64,000 bases of DNA from an uncultured Cohaesibacter sp. (GTDB lineage Bacteria; Pseudomonadota; Alphaproteobacteria; Rhizobiales; Cohaesibacteraceae), in the NCBI RefSeq assembly GCF_963682185.1, contig NZ_OY821667.1, positions 4,415,501 through 4,479,500 of the forward strand. Reading direction: 5' to 3'. Both the position numbers and the translations under genes were made by a program. Position 1 is the first letter of the stretch. Each line of letters begins with the position of its first letter. Below are positions 43,961 through 55,795 of this stretch, piece after piece. Below the pieces are notes generated by a model. That model made no database searches. It saw only the letters and a list, made by a program, of their open reading frames with translations, and was not told the DNA's origin.

Positions 43961-45076
43961 TCAGACAGTGCGAGCGGTTTGGGCGGAAGAGGGAGCTGAC
44001 GTGTCGTCAGGCAGGTCTGCTTCGGCCCATGGCACAAAGGTGGTGTAAAGAATGAGCAGGAAGATCCAGAGCCCGAAGGTGCCGATCACTCCCATGAGGC
44101 CTTCAATACCGGTGGGCATCAGGGCGTCATAGAGGCCGGAGCCGACCTTCGGCACCGCCTGTCCGCCCATGAAGACTGTCCAGCGGAACATCCATGCAGC
44201 GTGAATGGCGATCAGCCCCGTGACCCAGCCCGAGCGAGCCGGTAGCGCCAGCGCGATGACAAAGGGAATAACGATGGCCGCGGCAGCCCAAAGAGCGATG
44301 CGCTGCCACACGGTGAAGCCGGCAACCGAGGCGAGCGCCTCAGTGTGGCTCTGGCTGATGCCTGAAAAGGCGACCGCGAACCATAGCGCGCCGATGATGG
44401 CGACCACGCCAAGAGCCAGCGCCAGCATGCGGTTCATCTTCGCTTCCACAATAGCGCCGGTGGCAAACAGGCGACCAAGAATGAGCATCACGCCAAGCGC
44501 CCCAACAGCACCGGTTGCTGCAAACTGGAAGGGGAGAAGTGGCGTGTGCCAAAGCGGACGGGAATAGACCACGGCCACTTCCATGCCGGTATAGGTGAGA
44601 ATGCCGAGTGCGGCGACGCCTGCGCCGATGCCGATGAGGCGGGCAAATCCATTGGCCGGGCTGCCGAAAGCGAGAAAGCGGAAGAGCCATGCAAAGCGCC
44701 AGTCATCCTGACCCCAGCGATAGAAGGCAGGCCGGTTCACCGCCCATGCATAAAGCAGCAGCAAAGTGACATAGGACGAGACGATCCAGGCGCCCCAAGC
44801 CATCCATGAGGTGGCATGGGTATAAACGAAGAACTCCCAGAAGCGACCCGGCTGATGCAAATCGGCCAGCAGAGCAACAGGGCCGGAAATGCCGGTCGTC
44901 ACGGCTGTGATCAGCGCCAGCCGGGCATGGGGCAGGGAGGAACCCCGCCTGAAGACAAAGGCAGGGAAGGTGAGAAACAGGGCAGTCGTGGACATGCCGA
45001 TGAGGAAGAAATATTGCACGGCCCAAGGCAGCCAGGCGGCTTCATGGACGGCACCAACAAGCTCATGAATTTGCAT
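43961..45076 (-). CDS. ttrC: Tetrathionate reductase membrane subunit TtrC (NrfD-like)
   Basis: This 371-residue protein has eight or nine helices of the NrfD/PsrC type. It begins MQIHELVGAVHEAAWLPWAV and takes electrons from the quinol pool. The region GPVALLADLHQPGRFWEFF (helix 3 border) is characteristic of NrfD-family quinol sites. Start ATG 45076 shares its A with the ttrB stop (TGATG); a GTG lies one codon before. It passes electrons to TtrB and anchors the complex in the membrane. Confidence 0.93.
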   Translation of the reverse strand: MQIHELVGAVHEAAWLPWAVQYFFLIGMSTTALFLTFPAFVFRRGSSLPHARLALITAVTTGISGPVALLADLHQPGRFWEFFVYTHATSWMAWGAWIVSSYVTLLLLYAWAVNRPAFYRWGQDDWRFAWLFRFLAFGSPANGFARLIGIGAGVAALGILTYTGMEVAVVYSRPLWHTPLLPFQFAATGAVGALGVMLILGRLFATGAIVEAKMNRMLALALGVVAIIGALWFAVAFSGISQSHTEALASVAGFTVWQRIALWAAAAIVIPFVIALALPARSGWVTGLIAIHAAWMFRWTVFMGGQAVPKVGSGLYDALMPTGIEGLMGVIGTFGLWIFLLILYTTFVPWAEADLPDDTSAPSSAQTARTV

Positions 45077-45840
45077 CACCGGCCCTCCTCGTGATGGTCA
45101 ATATTGGTCGTGAGCGGAGGACGATAGGCGGCTTCTCCAGCCACGCGCCCGTCTAGCGCCTCGTCCAGTCCGATATAATAGACATTGGGTGCGGTATGCA
45201 TTTCCGGACGCAGAACAGAGACTTCATGTTCTTTCAGCAACTTCGACACCGTGCTTTCGGGATCATTGAGATCCCCGAAAATACGAGCGCCACCAACACA
45301 GGTTTCCACGCAGGCTGGAAGCAGCCCCGCTTCGGTGCGATGAATACAGAAGGTGCATTTGTCAGCGGTCTGGGTTTCGTGGTTGATGAAACGGGCATCA
45401 TAGGGGCAGGCCTGAACGCAATAGGCGCAGCCTACGCAACGCGATGCATCCACCAGCACCTCGCCGGTGCCTTCCTTCTTGTAGGTCGCCTCGACCGGGC
45501 AAACCTCGACGCAGGGGGGCTCGTCGCAATGGTTGCACAGCCGTGGCAGCATCACCATCGCAGGATCGCGCCCTTCCTTGACGACTTCATAAACGGAGAC
45601 ATGGGTGCGGAACGAATCTTCCGGCACCGCATTCTCCATGATGCAGGCCACTGTGCAGGCCTGACAGCCGATGCATTTGCGCAAGTCAACGACCATGCCC
45701 CATTTGGGGCCGGTCGTCTGGGTGCCATCGGAGGCTGAACCGGTTGCAGCTGAGGCATTGTTGGCGCCAGCGACCGTTGCCGCCGCGCCAATGCTCACCT
45801 GTCCGATCGCTCCAAGAAATTGGCGACGAGAACTGTCCAT
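45076..45840 (-). CDS. ttrB: Tetrathionate reductase iron-sulfur subunit TtrB
   Basis: This 254-residue four-cluster ferredoxin-type subunit has a twin-arginine signal, MDSSRRQFLGAIGQVSIGAA. Four cysteine groups are visible: KCIGCQACTVAC (C56, C59, C62, C66), CNHCDEPPCVEVCP, RCVGCAYCVQACP and CTFCIHRTEAGLLPACVETC. It carries electrons from TtrC to TtrA in the periplasm. AAAGGACC precedes ATG 45840. About 200 bases separate it from ttrR; this region probably holds the TtrR-controlled promoter. Confidence 0.95.
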   Translation of the reverse strand: MDSSRRQFLGAIGQVSIGAAATVAGANNASAATGSASDGTQTTGPKWGMVVDLRKCIGCQACTVACIMENAVPEDSFRTHVSVYEVVKEGRDPAMVMLPRLCNHCDEPPCVEVCPVEATYKKEGTGEVLVDASRCVGCAYCVQACPYDARFINHETQTADKCTFCIHRTEAGLLPACVETCVGGARIFGDLNDPESTVSKLLKEHEVSVLRPEMHTAPNVYYIGLDEALDGRVAGEAAYRPPLTTNIDHHEEGR

Positions 45841-46023
45841 GGCTGGTCCTTTCACTCCGCCCCGCTTTCTGCTTGCCGACTGGTTCGGCTAACGATAGGG
45901 GCGTTGGGTCTCTTAAGGACCGTCCCCTTGCCCACCAGAAAGGCGACGCAAGAAGGGCGGCCGGTCTGTTAACCAGCCTAGAGAGAGGAGCAAAAGGAGT
46001 GAATCAGGCCAAACCCAAGGCCC

Positions 46024-46041
46024 TTAGGGGGTAACCCCTAA
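46024..46041. promoter_or_regulatory. TTAGGGG-N4-CCCCTAA dyad upstream of ttrB
   Basis: A perfect 7-bp inverted repeat with spacer GTAA, overlapping the ttrR stop codon and about 185 bases upstream of the ttrB start. It is a good candidate for TtrR binding at the ttrBCA promoter. Termination is unlikely because no T tract follows on either strand. Confidence 0.45.
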
Positions 46042-46664
46042 ATCTTGTCCCAATTGACTGTGACAAGCTGCCGCACCAGATCGGCGGGCGTCGTGGCCTC
46101 CATCTTGGTCATCAGGTTATGGCGGTGAATTTCCACCGTCTTGAGGCTGATTCCAAAGTCTGCGGCAATCTGTTTGTTCTGCTTGCCGTCCATGATGGCG
46201 CGGGCGACATCCACCTCGCGGCCCGTCAGGCTTTCGATGCGGCTGGCAATGGCGGCCTTGAGGGCTTCATCCTCAGCGCGTGCGCGGGCTTCCTTGAGGG
46301 CATCATTGATGCGTTCCACCAGCGCCATGCCGTTGACGGGTTTCTCAAAAAAATCCAGAGCGCCCGACTGGATGGCCCGCACGGCCATGGGGACATCCGC
46401 GTGGGCGGTGATGATGATGACGGGTAGGGCACAGGCGCGGCGCTTCAATTCATCCAGCAGTTCCAGACCGCTCATGCCGGGCATGCGCACATCAGCCAGA
46501 ATGCAGCCAATGAGTGCGCCATCAAGCCGGTCGAGCAAGTCTAATGCTGAGCTGTGGGTTTCGATGGTAAGACCAAGGGAAGAGAGCATGAAGCCGAGCC
46601 CGTCGCGCACGGCCCGATCATCATCAACGATATGAATGATTCCATCCTCATTGATCGCATTCAT
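46038..46664 (-). CDS. ttrR: Response regulator TtrR (FixJ/NarL type)
   Basis: This 208-residue protein has a receiver domain at residues 8-120, with acidic pocket VDDDRAV, phospho-Asp at about D58 in LADVRMPG and the usual ITAHADVPMAVRAIQSGA. A LuxR-type helix-turn-helix at about 140-205 contains VDVARAIMDGKQNKQIAADF and KTVEIHRHNLMTKM. It is activated by TtrS and turns on ttrBCA when tetrathionate is present. The start overlaps the end of ttrS by four bases. Confidence 0.92.
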   Translation of the reverse strand: MNAINEDGIIHIVDDDRAVRDGLGFMLSSLGLTIETHSSALDLLDRLDGALIGCILADVRMPGMSGLELLDELKRRACALPVIIITAHADVPMAVRAIQSGALDFFEKPVNGMALVERINDALKEARARAEDEALKAAIASRIESLTGREVDVARAIMDGKQNKQIAADFGISLKTVEIHRHNLMTKMEATTPADLVRQLVTVNWDKI

Positions 46665-48442
46665 TCAGTCTCTCCTGCAGGCAGCCAGATGGCCACTTCA
46701 AGTCCCGGTCCGTCCGATGGGGAAAAGGCGCGCATGGAGCCGCCATGGGCTTCAACAATTGATCGGCTCAGCGCCAGCCCCAGCCCGATCCCCTCGGTCT
46801 TGGTTGTATAGAAGGCTTCGGCGAAATGGCCAAGATCTTCTTCATCCATGCCATGGCCAAAATCGCGCACGCTGAGCAATATGCCCCGCCCGCCTTCTTC
46901 CTTCTCGCGCACCGTGAGGATAGCCTCGCGCCGCTCCGCTGCCACCGCGTTCATTGCGTCGATGGCATTTTGCACCAGATTGAGCACCACTTGCTGGATC
47001 TGGATGGGGTCGACACGCAGCGCAGGCAGGCCGGGAGCCAGATCGAGGATCACGCGCACTCCGGCGCGGTTGGCAGAAGCTGCGTAAACGGCGGCGCAAT
47101 CGGCGACAAGTTCGGGCACGGTGATGGTAACGGGCTTGGATTCTTTCTTGCGCACGAAAGCCCGGATGCGCTTGACGACTTCCGCTGCGCGCTGTGCCTG
47201 CTGGGCGATTTCGGTGGATGCCAGCTCCATGTCGGCACTGCTGAACCGATCAGCCTTGATGCGCAGCAGGCACCCTTGCGCATAGTTGGAAATCGCCGCC
47301 AGCGGCTGGTTCAGCTCATGAGCAATGGAGGAGGCCATCTCCCCCAGAATGGAGAGGCGGGCCACATGTTCCAACTCGCGCTGATGTTGCCGGTCGGCCT
47401 CTTCGGCGCGTTTACGCTCGGCCATTTCCTGCTTCAGCTTTACGTTGGTTTCCTTGAGGTCGCGGGTGCGCTTGCGCACAAGGCTCTCGATGCGCACCGA
47501 ATAGATGGCCCAGAAAATCAGGGCACCTGCCAGAATGATCAGCCAGTCGCGATAATCCTCGATGAAGTCGGAAAGAGAAATCGGACCGGTGCGGGCATAG
47601 GGGCCGATCTGCAATTGCCGCAAGACATCATGCACCGATTGATAATCCAGCGGCACCGTCCAGAGATTGCCTTCCTGAATGCTGAGGAGCGTCACGGCCA
47701 CTTGCTTGGCAAAGGCGGCATCGGTCTTGGGTGTTTTGGCAAAGGGCCAGTTGGGATAGATCGGACTGGAAATGGCGCAGTCGGTCGGCATGTCGTGGCG
47801 TAGCGCAAAGCCATGCAGCGCGCCGTAGCGGGCCGGATTTTGCTTCTGCAACAGCTCCAACGTGCAGGTGCGCATCACCGCTGCGTCGGCCTTGCCATCC
47901 AGCACTGCTTCAGCCACATTCTGCATGGGATAGCCGGTCTGGACCAGCTCAACCCGGCGAGGGAGCGTCGGATCCTGCTTGTGCATTTCCGCCCAGATGA
48001 CCTGAAAGCCGCCAAAGGCTTCGGTGGTCATCACCGCCAGCTTCTTGCCTACCAGATCTTCCATGCTTTCAAAGTCACCGGATGTGACCAGCGTGGAGGC
48101 CACTGGCTGGTCTTCCTCAGCAGTGGCGATGCGGCTGATATGATGGCGAAATTCCAGTTCAGCATAATTGCCCGGGTTGGTGAGCACGAAATCCAGCTCG
48201 CCAGCTGTCAGCGCCGCATCAAGACCATCAATGTCCAGAGCCTCCAGCTCAAAGCGCACATCGGGAAAGGCAGCGCTCAGGCTGTCCGCCGTCTGTGCCC
48301 AGTGAGTGAGGGAGTGCTTGGCCCCCAGATAGTCCAGCACGCCGATCCGCTTGACTGTTTCGGCCAAGGCGGGGTGAACCCAGCATAAAAGGCCGACCAG
48401 AAGCGCAAAGAGCAGGATGGGACGGGAAAAATAGCTTTTCAT
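46661..48442 (-). CDS. ttrS: Tetrathionate sensor histidine kinase TtrS
   Basis: This 593-residue kinase has a signal peptide of about 27 residues. A periplasmic PhnD-like solute-binding domain spans about 28-295, where the ligand would be sensed. One helix lies near 299-318 (DWLIILAGALIFWAIYSV), followed by a coiled coil and the kinase: phospho-His375 in SSIAHELNQPLAAIS, N-box NLVQNAIDAM and G-box GIGLGLALSRSIVEAHGG. TtrS in Salmonella has the same layout. It controls TtrR encoded immediately after it. The gap upstream (300 bases) should hold its promoter. Confidence 0.93.
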   Translation of the reverse strand: MKSYFSRPILLFALLVGLLCWVHPALAETVKRIGVLDYLGAKHSLTHWAQTADSLSAAFPDVRFELEALDIDGLDAALTAGELDFVLTNPGNYAELEFRHHISRIATAEEDQPVASTLVTSGDFESMEDLVGKKLAVMTTEAFGGFQVIWAEMHKQDPTLPRRVELVQTGYPMQNVAEAVLDGKADAAVMRTCTLELLQKQNPARYGALHGFALRHDMPTDCAISSPIYPNWPFAKTPKTDAAFAKQVAVTLLSIQEGNLWTVPLDYQSVHDVLRQLQIGPYARTGPISLSDFIEDYRDWLIILAGALIFWAIYSVRIESLVRKRTRDLKETNVKLKQEMAERKRAEEADRQHQRELEHVARLSILGEMASSIAHELNQPLAAISNYAQGCLLRIKADRFSSADMELASTEIAQQAQRAAEVVKRIRAFVRKKESKPVTITVPELVADCAAVYAASANRAGVRVILDLAPGLPALRVDPIQIQQVVLNLVQNAIDAMNAVAAERREAILTVREKEEGGRGILLSVRDFGHGMDEEDLGHFAEAFYTTKTEGIGLGLALSRSIVEAHGGSMRAFSPSDGPGLEVAIWLPAGETE

Positions 48443-48742: not shown

Positions 48743-48994
48743 CTACTGTTGGCTGATCAAGCTGTCCAACAGCTTGTTGCACTGTTCCGAAATGCTTCTT
48801 TCGTTTTCTTTCAGGCACATGACGAGGCGCCCTTCACCGGGTTGGACCGCACTGCAATAGGCTTTTACATCTGCTTTGCAGGCTGATTTGATTTCTCGCA
48901 TCTGCGCAATGGACATGGAGCCCTGCGCGAAGGCTTGAAACGAGCACAGAGAGAGCAACGCGGCCAAAATGGCAAAGGTGGTTTTTCTTGTCAT
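48743..48994 (-). CDS. Small secreted Cys-rich repeat protein
   Basis: This 83-residue protein has a signal peptide (cleavage after SFQAFA) and a single Cys-rich unit: SACKADVKAYCSAVQPGEGR, then VMCLKENERSISEQC. The four cysteines, spaced as in the eukaryote-like Cys-rich (GLG1-type) repeat, suggest two disulfides in the periplasm. The function is unknown; small bacterial members have been seen near metal- and stress-related genes. It lies 98 bases downstream of the histidine kinase gene on the same strand and may be part of that regulatory unit. AAAGGGA is a good binding site. Confidence 0.75.
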   Translation of the reverse strand: MTRKTTFAILAALLSLCSFQAFAQGSMSIAQMREIKSACKADVKAYCSAVQPGEGRLVMCLKENERSISEQCNKLLDSLISQQ

Positions 48995-49092
48995 AAAACA
49001 TCCCTTTCAAATATGTCATGAGTGACTGAAGGGAGTTCTAAAGCATCTGTTTTGCTCGCATTTGTCCATGGAATTTCAAAATGTAACAGATG

Positions 49093-50460
49093 TTATTCTT
49101 CCGTGGATCCAAGTCGTTGCGAGAGGAGGGGCAGGGATAGCACAACCCGGCCATGGCCCTCAGATGTGGCAGACAGGGTTATCTTGCCGCCATGGGCACT
49201 CAATAGAGCCTGAACCACGGCGAGACCGAGGCCAGCGCCTCCTGTCTTGCGCGCACGGGATGGTTCGGACCGGGTGAACGGCTCCAGCAAAAGCGCGTGT
49301 TCACTTTCATTCTCGCCAAAACCGGGGCCCTCATCCTCGATGATGACATAAATGCCATCGGTGTTCTCCTTGACCTGAACGTGCGCCTTTGTGCCATATT
49401 TGATCGCATTTTCAATGACATTGACAAACACACGGCGCAAGGCAAGCCGATCCCCCAACACAAGAATCTCCTCCGTTGCGGGCACTTGCTCAAGGGTTAC
49501 CTGTTCTCCGGCCTGACGGAAATCGGCAATTTCGCCACGCAACAATACTCCGATATCGAGCAGTTCCTCGTTGAGGGCACCCACTTCGGCGCGGGAAGCC
49601 ATGAGCGCATTGTCCAACAGCTCGATCATGTCCCGAATGTCAGCTGTTGCTCTGAGGCGGTCCTGTTCTTGGGGCAGTTTTTCAACGCGCAGATGCAAGC
49701 GCGTTGCGAAGCTTCGGATATCGTGCTGTATGCCCCCGATGAGGGCAACGCGAGAGCGCGCCAGTGTGTGAAGCCTTACCTGTAGGCGATTGAAAGCGGC
49801 CGACAATGCCGTGACCTCAGGGGTTGCGGTTCTGAATTGGGGCAGTTCCACCATCTCGCCCGTCGGATCAATCTTTTCAACAGCTGCAGCCAATTTGGCC
49901 AGCGGGCGGATTTCCCTGTGCAGCAGAAAGAAAGCCAAGGCAGACAAGATCGCTCCCAAAAGTCCGGCATAAATCCCCGCTGGCACGCCGCTTCTGGTGG
50001 ATATGAAGGAGGTCTTCACCTCTACGATCATGAGGTTTCCATTTTGAAGCCGTATCCAGAATTCGAGAGGAAAGACAACGCCTGCAAAGAGTCTGGCGCC
50101 CGGGCGACCTTTCAGGCTTTCATTGGGCTGTATGCGGATAAGTTGTGCGCCCAATTGGATACGGTAGGGCGCAAACTCTTCCTCTTCCAGCAAATTGATG
50201 TCTGTGTGTGGTTGCTCAGAGGGAGGATGGATCTCCACTGATATCATCGCAGATGCCATGGCCTCAACCAGAGTCGTGATTTCTGGCGGCCCGAGCTGGT
50301 TTGCCAATGTGGCCAGCGCCTTCAACTGTTCAGGTTTGGGGTTGATCTGTCTCTCGGAGCCCCTGCCAGACCAGTAGAAGGAGGTGATCAGGACGATCCA
50401 GAGGACGACAAACAGGCTGGTGCCGATTGCCAGCAATCGCGAGGTGAGGCCAAAACGCAT
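49093..50460 (-). CDS. Sensor histidine kinase (EnvZ/PhoR type) of unknown stimulus
   Basis: This 455-residue protein has helix 1 at about 9-29, a periplasmic region of about 130 residues without a recognisable domain and helix 2 near 161-181. HAMP follows, then the kinase core: phospho-His246 in IGGIQHDIRSFATRLH, N-box VNVIENAIKYG, G1 EDEGPGFGENE and GGAGLGLAVVQALLSAHGGK. It is co-transcribed with the OmpR-family regulator two bases upstream. The divergent exporter operon is the likely target. The signal is not known; no close named homologue is obvious. Confidence 0.9.
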   Translation of the reverse strand: MRFGLTSRLLAIGTSLFVVLWIVLITSFYWSGRGSERQINPKPEQLKALATLANQLGPPEITTLVEAMASAMISVEIHPPSEQPHTDINLLEEEEFAPYRIQLGAQLIRIQPNESLKGRPGARLFAGVVFPLEFWIRLQNGNLMIVEVKTSFISTRSGVPAGIYAGLLGAILSALAFFLLHREIRPLAKLAAAVEKIDPTGEMVELPQFRTATPEVTALSAAFNRLQVRLHTLARSRVALIGGIQHDIRSFATRLHLRVEKLPQEQDRLRATADIRDMIELLDNALMASRAEVGALNEELLDIGVLLRGEIADFRQAGEQVTLEQVPATEEILVLGDRLALRRVFVNVIENAIKYGTKAHVQVKENTDGIYVIIEDEGPGFGENESEHALLLEPFTRSEPSRARKTGGAGLGLAVVQALLSAHGGKITLSATSEGHGRVVLSLPLLSQRLGSTEE

Positions 50461-50462
50461 TG

Positions 50463-51188
50463 TCAGGACACCTGCTTGACCGGTACAGATAACAGATAGC
50501 CCCCATTGCGCACGGTGCTTATAATCTCGCCGCCATTTTCCAGAGGCCCCAGCTTCTTGCGCAGACGGGAAACCAGAATGTCCACGGATCTGTCAAAGGG
50601 GTTGGCCTGTCTCCCATGCGTAAAGTCCAGTATCTGATCCCGTGAGAGCACACGTCTTGGCCGAAGAACAAAACAGGCCAGCAGCTCGAACTCGGCGCTG
50701 GTCAGGGCAATCTGTTCTTGCTCGGATGTGTGCAGTTGGCGCGCATCCAGATCAAGCACGAAGCGATCAAAGGCCATCCTGCGGCTTTCAGGACTGCTGA
50801 GGGACTGGTTGCCGATCCTGCGCAATAGGGCGCGGGTGCGGGCCAAAAGTTCGCGGCTGGAAAAAGGCTTGACCACATAGTCATCTGCACCGATTTCAAG
50901 TCCCACGACACGATCTAGCTCTTCTCCCTTGGCCGTCAACATCAGGATCGGCAATGCGTAGCGCGCCCTCAAGCGCCGACAGATCGAAAGCCCGTCCTCT
51001 CCGGGCAACATGAGATCTAAAATGATGAGGTCGGGAAAGTTCTTTTCCATCTCCAGATTCATCTCGATCGCATCCTGAGCGATGGAAACACTATAGCCTT
51101 CCTGTTCGAACAACTCAGCGATCAGCGACCGTATATCGTCATCATCATCAACGATCAGAATGCGTTTGCTTTGAGTATCCATGTGCAT
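50463..51188 (-). CDS. OmpR/PhoB-family response regulator
   Basis: This 241-residue protein has a receiver domain with VDDDDDIRSLIAELF at the acidic pocket, phospho-Asp about D58 in IILDLMLPGEDGL and the conserved Thr/Lys region. A winged helix at about 140-240 contains LTSAEFELLACFVLRPRRVL and FDRSVDILVSRLRKKLG. Two starts are possible (51188 and 51182); neither has a strong binding site. It diverges from the small repeat protein and exporter operon across 281 bases, so it probably controls them. Confidence 0.92.
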   Translation of the reverse strand: MHMDTQSKRILIVDDDDDIRSLIAELFEQEGYSVSIAQDAIEMNLEMEKNFPDLIILDLMLPGEDGLSICRRLRARYALPILMLTAKGEELDRVVGLEIGADDYVVKPFSSRELLARTRALLRRIGNQSLSSPESRRMAFDRFVLDLDARQLHTSEQEQIALTSAEFELLACFVLRPRRVLSRDQILDFTHGRQANPFDRSVDILVSRLRKKLGPLENGGEIISTVRNGGYLLSVPVKQVS

Positions 51189-51469
51189 CTTTCTGGGACT
51201 TGCCTTCCATCAACCAGCTTTTCCAGCCAACGGCCCTATGGTGCGATGTGAGCGCTCTATCCGGGGGAATTTTCAACATATGCTGGTCTCGTCGATCGAA
51301 AAAATCAATCGCTTTTCCTTGTCATTTACAAATTGATACATGCCAGAAACATATTGGAACAGCTTGAAAAGGCTCATTCATTTTGAAGAAAAGCGAAAGC
51401 CTCATCTTGGTTCTACGGGCTGCAAATCAGCTTTGCCCCTCAACATGAACCCAAGATACAGGATCAGGA

Positions 51470-51772
51470 ATGAGCAAAAAACTGACAATTGCATTGATGA
51501 GTAGCATGATTGCCCTCGCTGTGACGAGCCAGGCGAACGCGTGGACACGTAGCGGCACCGTTACAGGGCCGCGCGGTACGTCCAGCGTGCAGGCGTCCGG
51601 CAGTTGTGCCAATGGCTCCTGTAGCAGACAGGTGACCCGAACCAATCCTTATGGCCAAACGAGCACCCGCTCTGGATCTGCTACATGCGTAAATGGTGTT
51701 TGCACGGGCTCGTCTACGACCACCGGCCCCTATGGTGGTACTGTAACTCGGCAGGGAACTGTTACCCGCTAA
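51470..51772 (+). CDS. Small secreted protein with tandem Cys-Asn-Gly/GPYG repeats
   Basis: This 100-residue protein has a signal peptide of about 24 residues (MSKKLTIALMSSMIALAVTS, then QANA). The mature part is made of repeats: a partial unit (TRSGTVTGPRGTSS), then GSCANGSCSRQVTRTNPYGQ and ATCVNGVCTGSSTTTGPYGG, each ending in Thr/Arg-rich sequence. Four cysteines in CxxGxC or CxNGxC pairs suggest two disulfides. The same repeat occurs at the C terminus of the SH3 protein encoded at 55130. The function is unknown; the position beside an exporter and two-component system suggests an envelope role. Confidence 0.8.
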   Translation: MSKKLTIALMSSMIALAVTSQANAWTRSGTVTGPRGTSSVQASGSCANGSCSRQVTRTNPYGQTSTRSGSATCVNGVCTGSSTTTGPYGGTVTRQGTVTR

Positions 51773-51782
51773 GACCCTGCCT

Positions 51783-51830
51783 GCCCGGCAGACATCCGCA
51801 CCACTCGGATCCTCTGCCGGGCTTCCTTTT
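51783..51830 (+). terminator. Terminator or attenuator between the small repeat protein and the exporter genes
   Basis: GCCCGGCAGA (51783-51792) pairs perfectly with TCTGCCGGGC (51813-51822) over a 20-base loop, followed by TTCCTTTT. It lies 10 bases after the stop. Partial read-through would explain why the small protein precedes the exporter genes on the same strand without overlap. Confidence 0.7.
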
Positions 51831-51845
51831 CCGAAAGGTCTCCAA

Positions 51846-53222
51846 ATGCTTGACGCCATTTCCGACAAACAGTTCAAGGTTGGCGGATTGTCAGAGACAG
51901 AGGATCTGCCCCTCGTCGCTCCCCAGACAGATGAAGCCCGGAAACCAGAGGCTCCTCCTGCTTCAAAAAAGCCATTGCCTTCTTCGCTTGATCACAGCAA
52001 CAGCAAGGAAGCCCATTCGGGCGGCTTTCCTGTTCGTCCACGAGCGAAAGACCGTAATAGGAGAAAGGAGTTTCTGTTGGGGGCAGGGATGCTGCTTTTT
52101 GCCGCTTTCTGCTGGCTTGGTTGGCGCTATGGTGTGCCCCATACTGTGCCGGTGGAGCGAGCTGAAGCAAGCTTGTTTTATCCTGAAATCACTGGACCTG
52201 GTACCCTTGATGCGACCGGCAAAGCCAGCATAGCGAGCAACGTTCAGGGGCGTCTCCTGTCGCTTGATGTGGATGAGAATGATGCTGTTAAAGTCGGTGA
52301 TCTTCTGGCTCGGCTGGATAATGAAGAGGCGACGGCTCAGCTTGCTTCTCTGGAAGCCAGCTATGAAGCGTCGCACCATACCGTAGTGATGGCGAAGGCT
52401 GACTTGAAACAAACCCTTGTCAGCCTTGAGAACGCCAAGTCGGAATTCGAACGTCAGGTTCGTCTGCTTGAGACAAAGACAACCAGTCGCTCTTCTTATG
52501 AGACAGCCCAAACGGCATTGGCCCGTGCTGAGGCCGATAAGGCCAAGGCGGAGGCGACAGTTAATCAGAGCCAGTCTCAAATGATGGCTGCTGCCAAAAA
52601 TGCCGAGGCTCAGAGGGCGCAGCTTGACAAATACCGGATCAGCGCCCCCATCACGGGCATCGTCATCAACAGAAGCAAGGATATTGGCGACACTGTCAAT
52701 GTGGGCTCAACTTTTATCGAAATCGTAGATCCAAGCTCAATCGTCATCACAACGCGCTTTGATGAGAGCCTGATCTCCAAGGTCGCGCTGAAGCAAAAGG
52801 CATTCGTTTCCTTTTCTGCGAACCCGGATGCTCCGATTTCTGCCCGTGTTACCCGTATCGGACGACTGGTCGACGAGGAGACCCGCGAGTTTGAAGTGGA
52901 TGTAAAGCCCGATCATCTGCCGTTTCACTGGGCGGTCGGTCAGCGTGCAACCGTGAAATTGGAACTGGAAGCCCATCCCTTAGCCATCGCAATTCCTGCA
53001 GTATCGCTTGTTTACCGGAACGGACAGTCCGGCGTTTGGCTCTCTGAAAACGGGCGAGCCAGATGGCAGCCGGTTACTCTTGGAGCGGTTGCGGGAGAGC
53101 GTATCGAAATTCTGTCTGGACTATCCTCTGGCGACAAGTTCGTTTCCCTTCCCGGGCGTTTATATGCGGGCAGGCGTCTCAGGCCTTTGGACGCGCAATC
53201 GAAAAGCTTGGAACGTTCATGA
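51846..53222 (+). CDS. HlyD/MacA-type periplasmic adaptor with long cytosolic N-terminus
   Basis: This 458-residue protein has about 75 polar N-terminal residues (Pro-, Lys- and Asp-rich), one membrane helix near 76-96, a lipoyl/beta region near 110-155, a coiled-coil hairpin near 160-275 and a beta-barrel domain beyond. GYETA-type sequence (SYETAQTALARAEADKAKAE) is in the helical hairpin. Such adaptors link an inner-membrane pump to the outer membrane. The pump is encoded next: a MacB/FtsX-type permease and an ATPase. The N-terminal extension is longer than usual for the family. Confidence 0.88.
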   Translation: MLDAISDKQFKVGGLSETEDLPLVAPQTDEARKPEAPPASKKPLPSSLDHSNSKEAHSGGFPVRPRAKDRNRRKEFLLGAGMLLFAAFCWLGWRYGVPHTVPVERAEASLFYPEITGPGTLDATGKASIASNVQGRLLSLDVDENDAVKVGDLLARLDNEEATAQLASLEASYEASHHTVVMAKADLKQTLVSLENAKSEFERQVRLLETKTTSRSSYETAQTALARAEADKAKAEATVNQSQSQMMAAAKNAEAQRAQLDKYRISAPITGIVINRSKDIGDTVNVGSTFIEIVDPSSIVITTRFDESLISKVALKQKAFVSFSANPDAPISARVTRIGRLVDEETREFEVDVKPDHLPFHWAVGQRATVKLELEAHPLAIAIPAVSLVYRNGQSGVWLSENGRARWQPVTLGAVAGERIEILSGLSSGDKFVSLPGRLYAGRRLRPLDAQSKSLERS

Positions 53223-54385
53223 ATCTGGCAATCAAAGACATTCGTTATAGTCTTGGGCGCTTTGTGTTAACTGCGGCAGGCGTTGGCTTCTTGATAACGG
53301 CTTCCATCGGCATGGTTGGTCTCTATCGCGGTATCGTGGCTGATGCCTTGCTGTTGATAGAACATATCGGAGCCGATCTTTGGGTCGTGCAGGGGGGCCA
53401 TTCCGGACCTTTTTCTGAAAGTTCGGCAATTTCAACCGATATGGATCGAAGGGTTGAGGGCGTCTCTGGTGTTGCTTCTGTCAGGCGCTTCACCCAGACC
53501 AGTCAACAGGTCAGTTTCTCGGGACGCGAGGTGCGCGCCACGATTACGGCGATCGATTTCCCCCGAGACAGTGGCAATTGGCTCAAACTCAAGGCTGGCC
53601 GGTATCTGTGCAATGGGCATTACGAGGTCATTGCCAATGACAATCTGGGCTTCGCGCTTGGAGACCGCATCACCGTTGGACGTGACCTTTATACCGTTGT
53701 CGGTTTGACCTCTGGCATGGTGGATATGGGGGGCGATGGCCTGATGTTCATGACCGTCAATGACGTCATCACCATCATGAAGCGTCGAACCAATGAAGAG
53801 ATCCTGCTGGCGCGCAATTCAGATCTTGCTGCAGGGCTTGATAGCACAAGTGGGACGGAGACGTCGCTTGACAGTCAAAAGATCGCAGCGGTTCTGGTAT
53901 CGCTCACCTCGGCAGCCAGGGAACAGGCCGTGCGGGATGCTCTTCTCGCTTGGGGAGACGTCAATGTTATGAGCGAGCAGGATCAAAAGGATCTACTGCT
54001 CAACCAGCGTCTGCTGCGGTTGCGGATACAGATACTGGCCTTTACCGGCGTTTTACTGGTGGTCATGGCAATCGTCATTTCCCTGATCATCTATATGCTG
54101 ACCATAGAGAAACTGCATCAGATCGCCATGCTCAAGTTGATCGGTGCACGGAACTCTGTGGTGATCGGTATGATCGTGCAGCAGGCTTTTCTGATCGGAA
54201 TAGGAGGGTTTCTGTTTGGCATCGGATTGGCGCGCCTGATCTTTCCCCATTTCCCACGGCGAGTGGTGATGGATCTGCAAGATTTGGGGCTTCTCGCTCT
54301 GACCATTGCCATCATTTGCGCCTTTGCCAGCCTGATGGGAATTTCCCGTGCATTGAAGGTGAGAGCGCAGGAGGTGCTGTCATGA
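53219..54385 (+). CDS. FtsX/MacB-type ABC permease (DevC-like)
   Basis: This 388-residue protein starts MNLAIKDIRYSLGRFVLTAA; the ATG overlaps the adaptor stop by four bases. It has helix 1 (about 10-35), a large periplasmic domain (about 36-255) and three C-terminal helices (about 278-385). The layout is that of DevC, MacB and LolC/E permeases, which move or release substrates in the periplasm without a classical channel. VQGGHSGPFSESSAISTDMD lies in the periplasmic domain. The longer ORF upstream is rejected because it reads inside the adaptor gene. Confidence 0.88.
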   Translation: MNLAIKDIRYSLGRFVLTAAGVGFLITASIGMVGLYRGIVADALLLIEHIGADLWVVQGGHSGPFSESSAISTDMDRRVEGVSGVASVRRFTQTSQQVSFSGREVRATITAIDFPRDSGNWLKLKAGRYLCNGHYEVIANDNLGFALGDRITVGRDLYTVVGLTSGMVDMGGDGLMFMTVNDVITIMKRRTNEEILLARNSDLAAGLDSTSGTETSLDSQKIAAVLVSLTSAAREQAVRDALLAWGDVNVMSEQDQKDLLLNQRLLRLRIQILAFTGVLLVVMAIVISLIIYMLTIEKLHQIAMLKLIGARNSVVIGMIVQQAFLIGIGGFLFGIGLARLIFPHFPRRVVMDLQDLGLLALTIAIICAFASLMGISRALKVRAQEVLS

Positions 54386-55095
54386 CGGTCACTCCGGTTC
54401 TGTCCATCTGTGGTGCCAGCCGTATCTATCAAAGTGGTGATAGTTCCGTGCGGGCTCTGGACGATGTCTCCATGAATATCATGCCCGGTGAGGTTGTCGG
54501 CATTCTCGGTCCCAGCGGTTCGGGAAAGAGTACTTTGCTGCTGATTGCGGGGCTGCTGGAGCCGCCAACTCTGGGAGAGGTCTATATCGGCGGGGAGCGG
54601 GTGTCCTATCCCAATGCCATGCTCGATAGCCTGAGGGCATTTCGGCGCCACAATATCGGTTTTGTCTTCCAAAAAGCCAATCTCATTCCCTTTCTGACTG
54701 CGATGGAGAATGTATCTTTGGCGCTGCAAATCGACGATGTTTCTGCCCGTGATGCCAATGACTATGCCAGATGGCTGCTTGGCAGTCTGGATCTGGCCCA
54801 TCGCGTGGACAACCTGCCCAAGCAACTTTCTGGCGGTGAACAGCAACGTGTGGCCGTCGCCCGAGCCCTCGCCAACGACCCGAAGCTGATCCTTGCAGAC
54901 GAACCAACGGCAGCTCTGGATGGTGAGCGCGGCAAGCAGGTGATCGGTCTCTTTCGTCAGATCGCGACCCGTGCCGATGCAGGCGTCGCTGTCGTCACCC
55001 ATGATCCCCGTGTGCTGTCCCTGTTTGATCGCAGTTATGAGCTGCGGGACGGGAAAATCGTAAATGGCAATCAAACCCGTCAGCAAACAACCTGA
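54382..55095 (+). CDS. ABC exporter ATPase (LolD/MacB/DevA-like)
   Basis: This 237-residue ATPase has Walker [10 protein letters not shown], the signature [19 protein letters not shown] and Walker [20 protein letters not shown] with the catalytic Glu. The switch His is in [12 protein letters not shown]. It is most similar in plan to LolD/DevA ATPases that work with FtsX-type permeases. ATG 54382 overlaps the permease stop (TGA at 54383-54385). It is the third gene of the tripartite exporter. Confidence 0.93.
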
Positions 55096-55129
55096 CTGAA
55101 CCTGAACTCGTAAACCAATCGGAGAGCAA

Positions 55130-55795
55130 ATGATGATCCGAAGACTATTGATCGTGCTGGTCTTGTCCCTCCTGGGAGGACGACTGGCCTCGGCTGCGAC
55201 GGCATCCGTCGTTGTCACCAATCTCAATTTGAGGGCTGGGCCCTCGACCCAATATCCTGTGGTCACGGTGTTGCCTGCGGGCGGGCGCGTGCTTACAAAT
55301 GGCTGCCTGGCGGATTACAGCTGGTGTGATGTAACCTTCGGAACCTATCGCGGTTGGGTTGCAGCCCGGTATATTCAAGTGATTTATCAAGGCAATCCGG
55401 TGATTATAACACCTGCGGTGGCTCCCGCTCTAAGAGTTGCTGTGGTGCAGTTCAGCAGGGCCTATTGGAACCGTTATTATCGCGGATATCCATGGTATGG
55501 CCGCTGGGGTGTTTATGCTGCACCACCTCCGGCTCCGGCTCCGGCTCCTGCTCCGGCCCCAGCTCCCACAACGGGGGCTGCTCCTCCTCCGCCCCCAGCT
55601 CAGCCCGGAGTTGCCGTCAATCTGAATGGTAGCTGCGCAAATGGTGCCTGCAATGGTACGCGCACAGTTACAGGGCCTGCTGGCTATAGCGCCACGCGCT
55701 CACGCAGTTGCAACAGCGCAGACCGATCATGTTCTGTAACCCGGTCCGGGCCTCGCGGAGGCAGTTATTCCGGCGTAAGAACATTTAATCCTTAA
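55130..55795 (+). CDS. Secreted SH3-domain protein with Pro/Ala linker and C-terminal Cys-Asn-Gly repeats
   Basis: This 221-residue protein has a signal peptide of about 22 residues. A bacterial SH3 (SH3b/SH3_3) domain spans about 23-85, with NLNLRAGPSTQYPVVTVLPA and GWVAARYIQVIY. A Tyr/Trp-rich stretch (YWNRYYRGYPWYGRWGVYA) and a Pro/Ala tract near 126-155 follow. The last 58 residues hold two repeats like those of the 51470 protein: GSCANGACNGTRTVTGPAGY and NSADRSCSVTRSGPRGGSYS. The SH3 domain suggests peptidoglycan contact. It is the last gene of the exporter operon. Confidence 0.85.
   Translation: MMIRRLLIVLVLSLLGGRLASAATASVVVTNLNLRAGPSTQYPVVTVLPAGGRVLTNGCLADYSWCDVTFGTYRGWVAARYIQVIYQGNPVIITPAVAPALRVAVVQFSRAYWNRYYRGYPWYGRWGVYAAPPPAPAPAPAPAPAPTTGAAPPPPPAQPGVAVNLNGSCANGACNGTRTVTGPAGYSATRSRSCNSADRSCSVTRSGPRGGSYSGVRTFNP
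55528..55566 (+). repeat. GGCTCC-type simple repeat encoding the Pro/Ala linker
   Basis: The segment repeats CCGGCT- and CCTGCT-like hexamers that encode alternating Ala-Pro. It may vary in length between strains by slippage, in steps of two residues, without breaking the frame. Confidence 0.6.

What the first reader, a model, noticed from the sequence alone, without database searches (positions are those of the whole stretch)
48743..55795. Two-component-regulated HlyD-FtsX-ABC exporter bracketed by secreted proteins that share a repeat
The sequence shows a histidine kinase and OmpR regulator diverging from an operon of a small secreted repeat protein, an HlyD adaptor, an FtsX-type permease, a LolD-like ATPase and an SH3-domain protein. 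The first and last proteins carry the same Cys-Asn-Gly/TGPxG repeat, which suggests they are parts, substrates or sensors of the same system. Adaptor-permease-ATPase sets are known (DevBCA, MacAB-like), but I do not recognise this combination with the repeat proteins. The exported substrate and stimulus are unknown.
Basis: partly seen in the sequence, partly recalled or inferred. Interest (0 to 1): 0.7.

Follow-up and report, generated by a model that had tools for sequence, protein, structure and literature searches.

The report
Sensor module with secreted repeat proteins
A bacterial two-component sensor appears to switch on a set of small secreted cysteine-containing proteins through a shared DNA operator, and an ABC exporter next to them is an optional add-on; neither the signal nor the job of the small proteins is known.

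Summary
The gene layout is real, and so is the repeat shared by the small protein (51470-51772) and the SH3 protein (55130-55795); in the own genome only these two carry it at E<=0.001. The interpretation needs turning round. In 297 genomes of the order the repeat follows the two-component system (25 of 29 repeat genomes hold this kinase family), not the exporter: 17 of 29 have no exporter relative at E<=1e-15. A third secreted protein, 48743-48994, belongs to the set. A direct-repeat operator (TTACA-N5-TTACA) lies between the regulator and its divergent partner. Independent copies lie before 25 of 41 SH3-repeat genes and 0 of 58 permease genes. Outside the order the layout recurs, with the operator at 6 of 6 loci that hold the regulator. 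Sister systems carry operator-like sites too, several with an EF-hand or Met/Gln/Gly-rich secreted protein in the same slot. Most likely this is an envelope- or ligand-stress module whose main output is the secreted proteins, with a MacB-like exporter as an interchangeable effector. Signal, cargo and protein function remain unknown.

The parts
48743..48994 (-). Cys-rich: small secreted protein, 83 aa, PF00839 cysteine-rich repeat, four invariant cysteines in 12 aligned relatives
   Evidence: recurs at many module loci
49070..49089 (-). weak operator-like site 76-95 bases before the Cys-rich gene; the matching site in the sister species scores higher
   Evidence: score 10.1 in the window, 15.1 in the sister genome L038; below the cut-off of 11, so only suggestive
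49093..50460 (-). EnvZ-like sensor histidine kinase, 455 aa; extracytoplasmic region about residues 32-165 (read from the sequence) without a Pfam name; H246-D247 invariant in 10 aligned relatives
50463..51188 (-). OmpR-family response regulator, 241 aa
51323..51342 (+). predicted regulator operator, direct repeat CATTTACAAATTGATACATG
   Evidence: score 27.6; this site was one of the training sites
51344..51363 (+). second, weak operator-like stretch 21 bases on
   Evidence: score 10.5 in the window; 12.9 in the sister genome L038
51470..51772 (+). Rep1: small secreted protein, 100 aa, C-x4-C / GPxG repeats, four invariant cysteines; unnamed family
51783..51822 (+). 15-pair hairpin with a T-rich tail between Rep1 and the adaptor gene; possible terminator or attenuator
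   Evidence: z = -3.43
51846..53222 (+). periplasmic adaptor (HlyD / RND_mfp type)
53219..54385 (+). MacB_PCD / FtsX permease; start overlaps the adaptor stop
54382..55095 (+). ABC ATPase; start overlaps the permease stop
55130..55795 (+). SH3rep: secreted SH3_3 domain, Tyr/Pro/Trp-rich linker, C-terminal tail with the Rep1-type repeats

Best explanation
This is a self-contained sensor-response module. An EnvZ-like kinase detects a stimulus in the cell envelope and phosphorylates an OmpR-type regulator (inferred from the families). The regulator binds a 10-base-spaced direct repeat between its own gene and the divergent operon (site found by computation, binding inferred). That switches on small Sec-exported, disulfide-type proteins (Rep1, the Cys-rich protein, SH3rep and, in relatives, a possibly Spy/CpxP-like LTXXQ protein), which act in the periplasm or on the peptidoglycan. 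They are the conserved output and perhaps also feed back on the kinase (inferred, by analogy with CpxP, recalled). The adaptor-permease-ATPase set is a MacB-like pump placed behind the same promoter in about a third of the systems; it would clear periplasmic molecules. Stimulus and cargo are not determined.
For: Of 35 kinase hits at >=298 bits in 297 order genomes, 32 have at least one of Rep1, SH3rep or Cys-rich beside them and 11 have the exporter. Kinase family and repeat co-occur in 25 genomes (34 and 29 of 297). Operator: de novo total score 1003 against 437-446 in three shuffled sets; a site >=11 lies within 300 bases of 62 of 66 module regulators, 42 of these sites being the training set. 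The matrix then finds sites not used to build it: before 25 of 41 SH3rep, 7 of 17 LTXXQ, 2 of 6 distant Rep1 and 3 of 46 Cys-rich genes, against 0 of 58 permease, 0 of 58 ATPase, 0 of 65 kinase and 0 of 50 separately placed adaptor genes. Outside the order, 8 of 385 genomes searched hit, one being the window's own; of the 8 loci from the other 7, the 6 that hold the regulator (4 of them from one family) have the operator at 27.5-31.0 and the order RR-HK / Rep1 / Cys-rich; 2 loci from one genome have neither regulator nor site. The exporter label needs 12 changes, at least 9 on well-supported branches, on the kinase tree.
Against: No expression, binding or phenotype data exist here. Sister regulators without these genes also carry operator-like sites (10.7-20.9 at 12 of 12 loci), so the operator is not specific to the module; 4 of 66 module regulators (L065, L075, L078, L231) have no site >=11. 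In the window the Cys-rich gene has only a weak site (10.1), and 43 of 46 separately placed Cys-rich genes have none >=11. The LTXXQ gene was not seen in the window locus, PF07813 matches only 9 of 17 members (best 1.7e-5; the two scores shown, 17 and 18 bits, are under the cut-off of 24.3), and its model found no significant fold match. Three of the 35 kinases have no small-protein gene beside them on their contig (one at a contig edge). A pattern scan of the own genome shows no excess of sites. 'Envelope stress' rests on families, not on a measured stimulus.
Confidence: 0.62

Rival explanations
1. Metal or cation module: the stimulus is a metal ion (or thiol stress) and the divergent secreted protein is a metal-binding buffer or co-sensor; the C-x4-C repeats, and in sister systems EF-hands or Met/Gln/Gly repeats, are the ligand sites.
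For: Among the 10 sister loci of lower kinase score (L240-L249), 5 have a secreted EF-hand protein diverging from the regulator (L242, L248, L249 by Pfam; L244, L245 read from the sequence; L242, L244, L245 are one genus) and 2, of one genus, a Met/Gln/Gly-rich secreted protein (L240, L246, read from the sequence; no Pfam match above cut-off). A YHS-domain protein lies near in L247. For L241 (contig edge) and L243 nothing was found. Two of three plasmids looked at carry a distant exporter relative near arsenic or cadmium/copper genes (not).
Against: No metal gene was recognised in the window module; the cysteines may be plain disulfides; the plasmid exporters have a TetR-type regulator gene beside them and only about 36% identity.
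Confidence: 0.25
2. Exporter-centred reading: Rep1 (and Cys-rich) are Sec-exported disulfide peptides that the MacB-like pump ejects from the periplasm, as MacAB does with enterotoxin STII, and SH3rep anchors the pump at the peptidoglycan.
For: Same operon in the window; STII precedent in the MacB review (PMC5985334, passages seen); small secreted cysteine proteins beside a MacB-like pump.
Against: 17 of 29 genomes with the repeat have no relative of the pump at E<=1e-15; 6 of 59 permease loci have none of the small proteins (L081, L097, L098, L102, L103, L106; some on short contigs).
Confidence: 0.15
3. Feedback reading: Rep1 and/or Cys-rich bind the kinase's extracytoplasmic domain and hold it off until they are titrated away, as recalled for CpxP on CpxA, FeuN on FeuQ and ExoR on ExoS.
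For: Rep1 and Cys-rich are what remains beside the kinase at many loci without the exporter.
Against: No interaction evidence; the layout would also fit a plain output. The CpxP, FeuN and ExoR roles are recalled, not tested here.
Confidence: 0.3
4. Haem or porphyrin detoxification by an HrtB-like pump.
For: The window permease matches PDB chain 7w78_B at 5.5e-5 over 87 residues (that this is the HrtB haem exporter is recalled); a haem receptor gene is a neighbour in L051.
Against: The profile search ranks LolF chains first and has MacB close by, so the match is generic to the superfamily; the haem receptor was seen at a few loci only.
Confidence: 0.05

Closest known systems
MacAB-TolC / DevBCA-type tripartite ABC exporters
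   Same: adaptor plus MacB_PCD/FtsX permease plus ABC ATPase
   Different: permease and ATPase on separate chains unlike MacB; the MacA, MacB, DevA, DevB, DevC and LolD models match below their curated cut-offs; sits with repeat proteins; no outer-membrane channel gene was recognised in the ORF list (by eye)
EnvZ-OmpR / CpxA-CpxR envelope two-component systems
   Same: domain content; the best NCBIfam models are EnvZ and OmpR; a possibly Spy/CpxP-like LTXXQ gene under the same operator in relatives
   Different: scores far below the equivalog cut-offs; no counterpart of Rep1 known to me there
CenK-CenR and EssS-EssR of Alphaproteobacteria
   Same: alphaproteobacterial OmpR-type envelope regulators
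   Different: CenR operator is TGA-N8-TGA in Rhodobacter (PMC9275681, passages) and an inverted AGTCAC-N6-GTGACT repeat is reported in Sinorhizobium (PMC9561847, passages); here TTACA-N5-TTACA. EssRS is described as widely conserved (PMC10746171, passages), this module is patchy; EssRS sequences were not compared
BceAB-BceRS
   Same: MacB-superfamily pump linked to a two-component system (PMC5985334, passages)
   Different: ten-helix permease; there the kinase needs the pump to sense, here the kinase family is often found without the pump; Gram-positive, no adaptor (recalled)

Membership tests
MacB superfamily permease | MacB_PCD and FtsX domains above Pfam cut-off | tested here: met
   50.0 against 27 and 32.4 against 25.5 bits
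MacAB | MacA and MacB equivalog models above cut-off | tested here: not met
   MacA 71.6 against 342; MacB model on the ATPase 200.2 against 966
DevBCA | DevA, DevB, DevC models above cut-off | tested here: not met
   201.2/295.8, 39.9/129, 27.6/290.35
Tripartite exporter | works with a TolC-type outer-membrane channel | not tested
   none recognised by eye in the ORF list; the genome was not searched for TolC
RND/HlyD periplasmic adaptor | TIGR01730 above cut-off | tested here: met
   163.2 against 94.9
EnvZ / OmpR equivalogs | equivalog models above cut-off | tested here: not met
   EnvZ 141.8/415; OmpR 236.5/331
OmpR-type two-component system | Response_reg plus Trans_reg_C; HATPase_c plus phospho-accepting His | tested here: met
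   H246 invariant in 10 kinases; HAMP just under its cut-off and no HisKA match
CenK-CenR | operator TGA-N8-TGA | tested here: not met
   de novo operator TTACA-N5-TTACA against the published motif
Cpx-type system with CpxP/Spy protein | LTXXQ-family protein in the regulon | tested here: inconclusive
   LTXXQ-like gene in 19 loci, near-identical ones included; 9 of 17 members match PF07813, those shown below cut-off; operator before 7 of 17; no fold match; not seen in the window locus
FeuPQ-FeuN / ExoR-ExoS-ChvI | periplasmic protein that inhibits the kinase | not testable with these tools
   needs a deletion or a binding test

The most novel reading that the evidence does not exclude
A widespread alphaproteobacterial class of two-component systems with a swappable slot: one operator type and one divergent position, filled by different secreted ligand-binding proteins (C-x4-C/GPxG repeat, EF-hand, Met/Gln/Gly-rich) that act as periplasmic co-sensors and set which ligand the kinase reads; effectors such as the MacB-like pump are plugged in behind.
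Probability: 0.3. Interest if true: 0.75.

Novelty: new variant of a known kind. Interest (0 to 1): 0.55.

Why it matters
It gives a predicted operator and a small set of target genes to a two-component system for which six searches for this module, its parts or its layout found no description (one open-access library; hits judged by title and abstract start). It points to a secreted protein family (Rep1) for which 15 members gave no convincing Pfam, NCBIfam or PDB match (best E-values 0.0018, 0.016 and none), and it ties bacterial PF00839 cysteine-rich proteins, which have no role that I know of, to a regulator. The module sits in Rhizobium johnstonii 3841 (L064) and other culturable strains, so the prediction can be tested with single gene deletions. 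Near-identical copies in several genera indicate that it moves between bacteria.

Tried and rejected
Exporter as the core: rejected, see the co-occurrence counts. Genome-wide regulon: a 15-base pattern with one mismatch gave 34 hits in the own genome against 43 for the reversed control, so no wide regulon is visible. A second, palindromic site (G000 133052, also in G149) lies before a different response regulator; sites in L250 and L255 lie just behind KDG kinase/aldolase-like genes (names by eye), not before them; both were left aside. HvfA-like metallophore: 14.5 bits against a cut-off of 95, rejected. SH3rep structure: pLDDT 49, too poor for a fold search; only the repeat tail (blocks of about 59-72) suggests beta strands. 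LTXXQ structure: pLDDT 73 but no significant match. Hairpin after Rep1: 18 of 37 loci at z below -2, so common but not general. CenKR and EssRS as the identity: the CenR motif differs; EssRS was not compared by sequence.

Limits: the motif finder is my own script with mononucleotide shuffles as control; of its 44 sites I put 42 into the matrix and left out those of the two sphingomonad loci L080 and L114. The random-window rate of 2.6% includes true sites. The 41 SH3rep genes include a second fragment in L095. Start codons of several relatives are guesses, and some LTXXQ sites fall outside the scanned 30-260 bases for that reason. Fisher values ignore relatedness, and the 29 'repeat' genomes include some (G183, G223) where only the SH3rep tail was hit. 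The named loci were found through the permease, so they over-represent exporter loci. In the kinase tree L100 and L101 count as exporter-bearing although the pump is over 5 kb away, L177 was skipped (fragment), and L116 counts as 'none' although pump remnants are there. Fourteen near-identical loci of 95 were dropped and in the operator count.
Full report
What is there. The window is part of a 5.39-Mb single-contig genome of the genus of Cohaesibacter haloalkalitolerans: G149, a genome of the window's own genus, has an 88% identical permease on a contig of 551,965 bases, the length of the C. haloalkalitolerans JC131 contig found independently. Between 48743 and 55795 lie eight genes. On the minus strand: the Cys-rich protein (PF00839), an EnvZ-like kinase and an OmpR-type regulator. 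On the plus strand: Rep1, adaptor, permease, ATPase and SH3rep. Adaptor and permease, and permease and ATPase, overlap by a few bases (junctions). A strong hairpin with a T-rich tail separates Rep1 from the adaptor gene (z = -3.43), so Rep1 may be made in excess over the pump (inference).

The repeat. Rep1 and SH3rep share a unit with C-x4-C and GPxG turns. In the own genome only these two proteins carry it at E<=0.001 (single-sequence search). Rep1 has four invariant cysteines in 15 relatives and an A-x-A signal-peptide end (read from the sequence). Its 15 members gave no convincing Pfam, NCBIfam or PDB match. The model of SH3rep is poor (pLDDT 49), but the repeat tail, at roughly 59-72, is drawn as beta strands.

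What travels with what. The permease has relatives in 37 of 297 order genomes; 15 are at least 50% identical (own genome included) and the others at most 41%. The Rep1 profile hits 29 of 297, in some only through an SH3rep tail; the kinase family at >=298 bits is in 34 of 297, with 35 hits. Overlaps: kinase and repeat 25 genomes, close exporter and repeat 11, close exporter and kinase 12; the 22 genomes with only distant exporters overlap with each in 1. Of the 29 repeat genomes 17 have no exporter relative at E<=1e-15. I fetched neighbourhoods for many of these. At most of them Rep1 diverges from the same regulator-kinase pair, often with the Cys-rich gene behind it (L176-L188, L194; exceptions L186 and L189 show no pair). 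Of the 35 kinases, 32 have at least one small-protein gene beside them and 11 have the exporter; those without are G174, G272 and G232, the last at a contig edge with Rep1 and Cys-rich on another contig. Ten related kinases of lower score (L240-L249) have none of Rep1, SH3rep or Cys-rich. In G058 the regulator pair with Rep1 and the exporter with SH3rep and Cys-rich lie in two places. On a kinase tree of 63 rows the exporter label needs 12 changes, at least 9 on well-supported branches. The pump is therefore a movable addition.

Other recurring neighbours are a fatty-acid-hydroxylase superfamily gene (22 loci; the L064 member has PF04116 at 108 bits and the OlsE model at 75.8 against a cut-off of 475) and an LTXXQ-like secreted protein (19 loci, near-identical ones included; 9 of 17 members match PF07813, best 1.7e-5).

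The operator. In 44 dereplicated regions between the regulator and its divergent partner an own motif finder found CtGTTACAAAtTGtTACAaA, a direct repeat of TTACA at 10-base spacing. The total score was 1003, against 437-446 in three shuffled sets. Spacing and form are those of OmpR-family operators (CenR has a 10-base-spaced direct repeat of another sequence; PMC9275681, passages). A site >=11 lies within 300 bases of 62 of 66 module regulators; 42 sites were the training set, and L065, L075, L078 and L231 have none. The matrix was then used on genes outside the training regions: 25 of 41 SH3rep, 7 of 17 LTXXQ, 2 of 6 Rep1 and 3 of 46 Cys-rich genes have a site at >=11 in the 30-260 bases upstream, against 0 of 50 adaptor, 0 of 58 permease, 0 of 58 ATPase and 0 of 65 kinase genes; random windows 2.6%. 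In the window the main site is 51323-51342 (27.6), with weak stretches at 51344-51363 and before the Cys-rich gene at 49070-49089. SH3rep of the window has no site of its own; it follows the ATPase gene by 34 bases. A check outside the order: 8 of 385 genomes hit with Rep1 at E<=1e-8, one of them the window's own. The other 7 gave 8 loci; 6 loci hold the regulator (4 of the 6 genomes are of one family), all 6 have Rep1 and then Cys-rich diverging from it, and all 6 have a site at 27.5-31.0. The other 2 loci belong to one genome and show neither regulator nor site.

Results that limit this. Sister regulators without these genes also have operator-like sites, 10.7-20.9 at 12 of 12 loci. So the operator belongs to a wider regulator subfamily. 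In that subfamily the divergent slot often holds other secreted proteins: EF-hand proteins in L242, L244, L245, L248 and L249, Met/Gln/Gly-rich ones in L240 and L246. Pfam confirmed EF-hands in L242, L248 and L249; L244, L245, L240 and L246 were read from their sequence. The pattern scan of the own genome shows no excess of sites. The exporter locus of G058 (L044) has no site >=11.

How it most likely works. Shown computationally: layout, co-occurrence, operator, independent operators before SH3rep and LTXXQ genes. Inferred: the kinase reads an extracytoplasmic cue; the regulator binds the operator and drives both directions; the secreted proteins act in the periplasm; the pump, when present, clears periplasmic molecules as MacB does (mechanism in PMC5985334, passages). 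Whether Rep1 is output, buffer or feedback partner is open. The recurrent secreted, in part ligand-binding, protein in the same slot makes a co-sensor or buffer role attractive.

What it is not shown to be. It passes the general tests for a MacB-superfamily pump and an OmpR-type two-component system but fails the curated cut-offs for MacAB, DevBCA, LolD, EnvZ and OmpR, and its operator is not CenR's. Six searches of the held library for this module, its parts or its layout returned no description of it (two of them returned nothing, the others listings that I judged by title and abstract start, except PMC5985334, of which I saw passages).

Mobility. Aureimonas, Consotaella, Shinella and Pseudochrobactrum records share 12 kb at 99.95-99.99% identity; in three of the four the SH3rep gene lies 1.7-2.8 kb further from its operator than in the fourth, in L060 because of a stretch that matches ISPme1. 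Two sphingomonad records share 17.7 kb at 99.96%. Plasmid copies exist in Rhizobium ruizarguesonis and R. gallicum.

Noticed in passing
L059, L060, L061, L062: Four genera carry the module with 99.95-99.99% identical DNA over 12 kb; in three an insertion (in L060 it matches ISPme1 copies on plasmids) separates the SH3rep operator from its gene. Suggests a recent mobile element.
   Followed up: partly
L281, L282, L283 (plasmids): 207 plasmid records hold a relative of the permease, 205 of them under 60% identity. In two looked at (L281 E. coli, L282 Rhizobium) the order is TetR - adaptor - permease - ATPase - cytochrome, near arsenic or cadmium/copper genes; in L283 (Acidiphilium) neither TetR nor cytochrome is next to it.
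   Followed up: partly
L240, L242, L244-L246, L248, L249: Sister two-component systems diverge from secreted EF-hand or Met/Gln/Gly-rich proteins and carry operator-like sites.
   Followed up: partly
L116:3650-5515: In Rhizobium sp. BK316 the exporter genes are in pieces while kinase, regulator, Cys-rich and SH3rep score as whole.
   Followed up: no
L051:1367-5925: A haem/haemoglobin TonB receptor between two RTX-repeat proteins lies beside the module in one genome of the genus code of Acuticoccus; related genes in L178 and L179.
   Followed up: no
L081:12474-12503: Two strong overlapping operator sites (25.7 and 28.1) near an exporter that lacks the regulator pair nearby; target gene not identified.
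   Followed up: no
43961-48442: NrfD-like membrane protein, ferredoxin-type iron-sulphur subunit, response regulator and sensor kinase with a binding-protein-like domain: resembles a tetrathionate reductase locus (recalled, not tested).
   Followed up: no
L250, L255: Good operator-like sites (30.6 and 28.9) just behind KDG kinase / aldolase-like genes in both Cohaesibacter-like genomes; target unclear, perhaps another regulator's.
   Followed up: no
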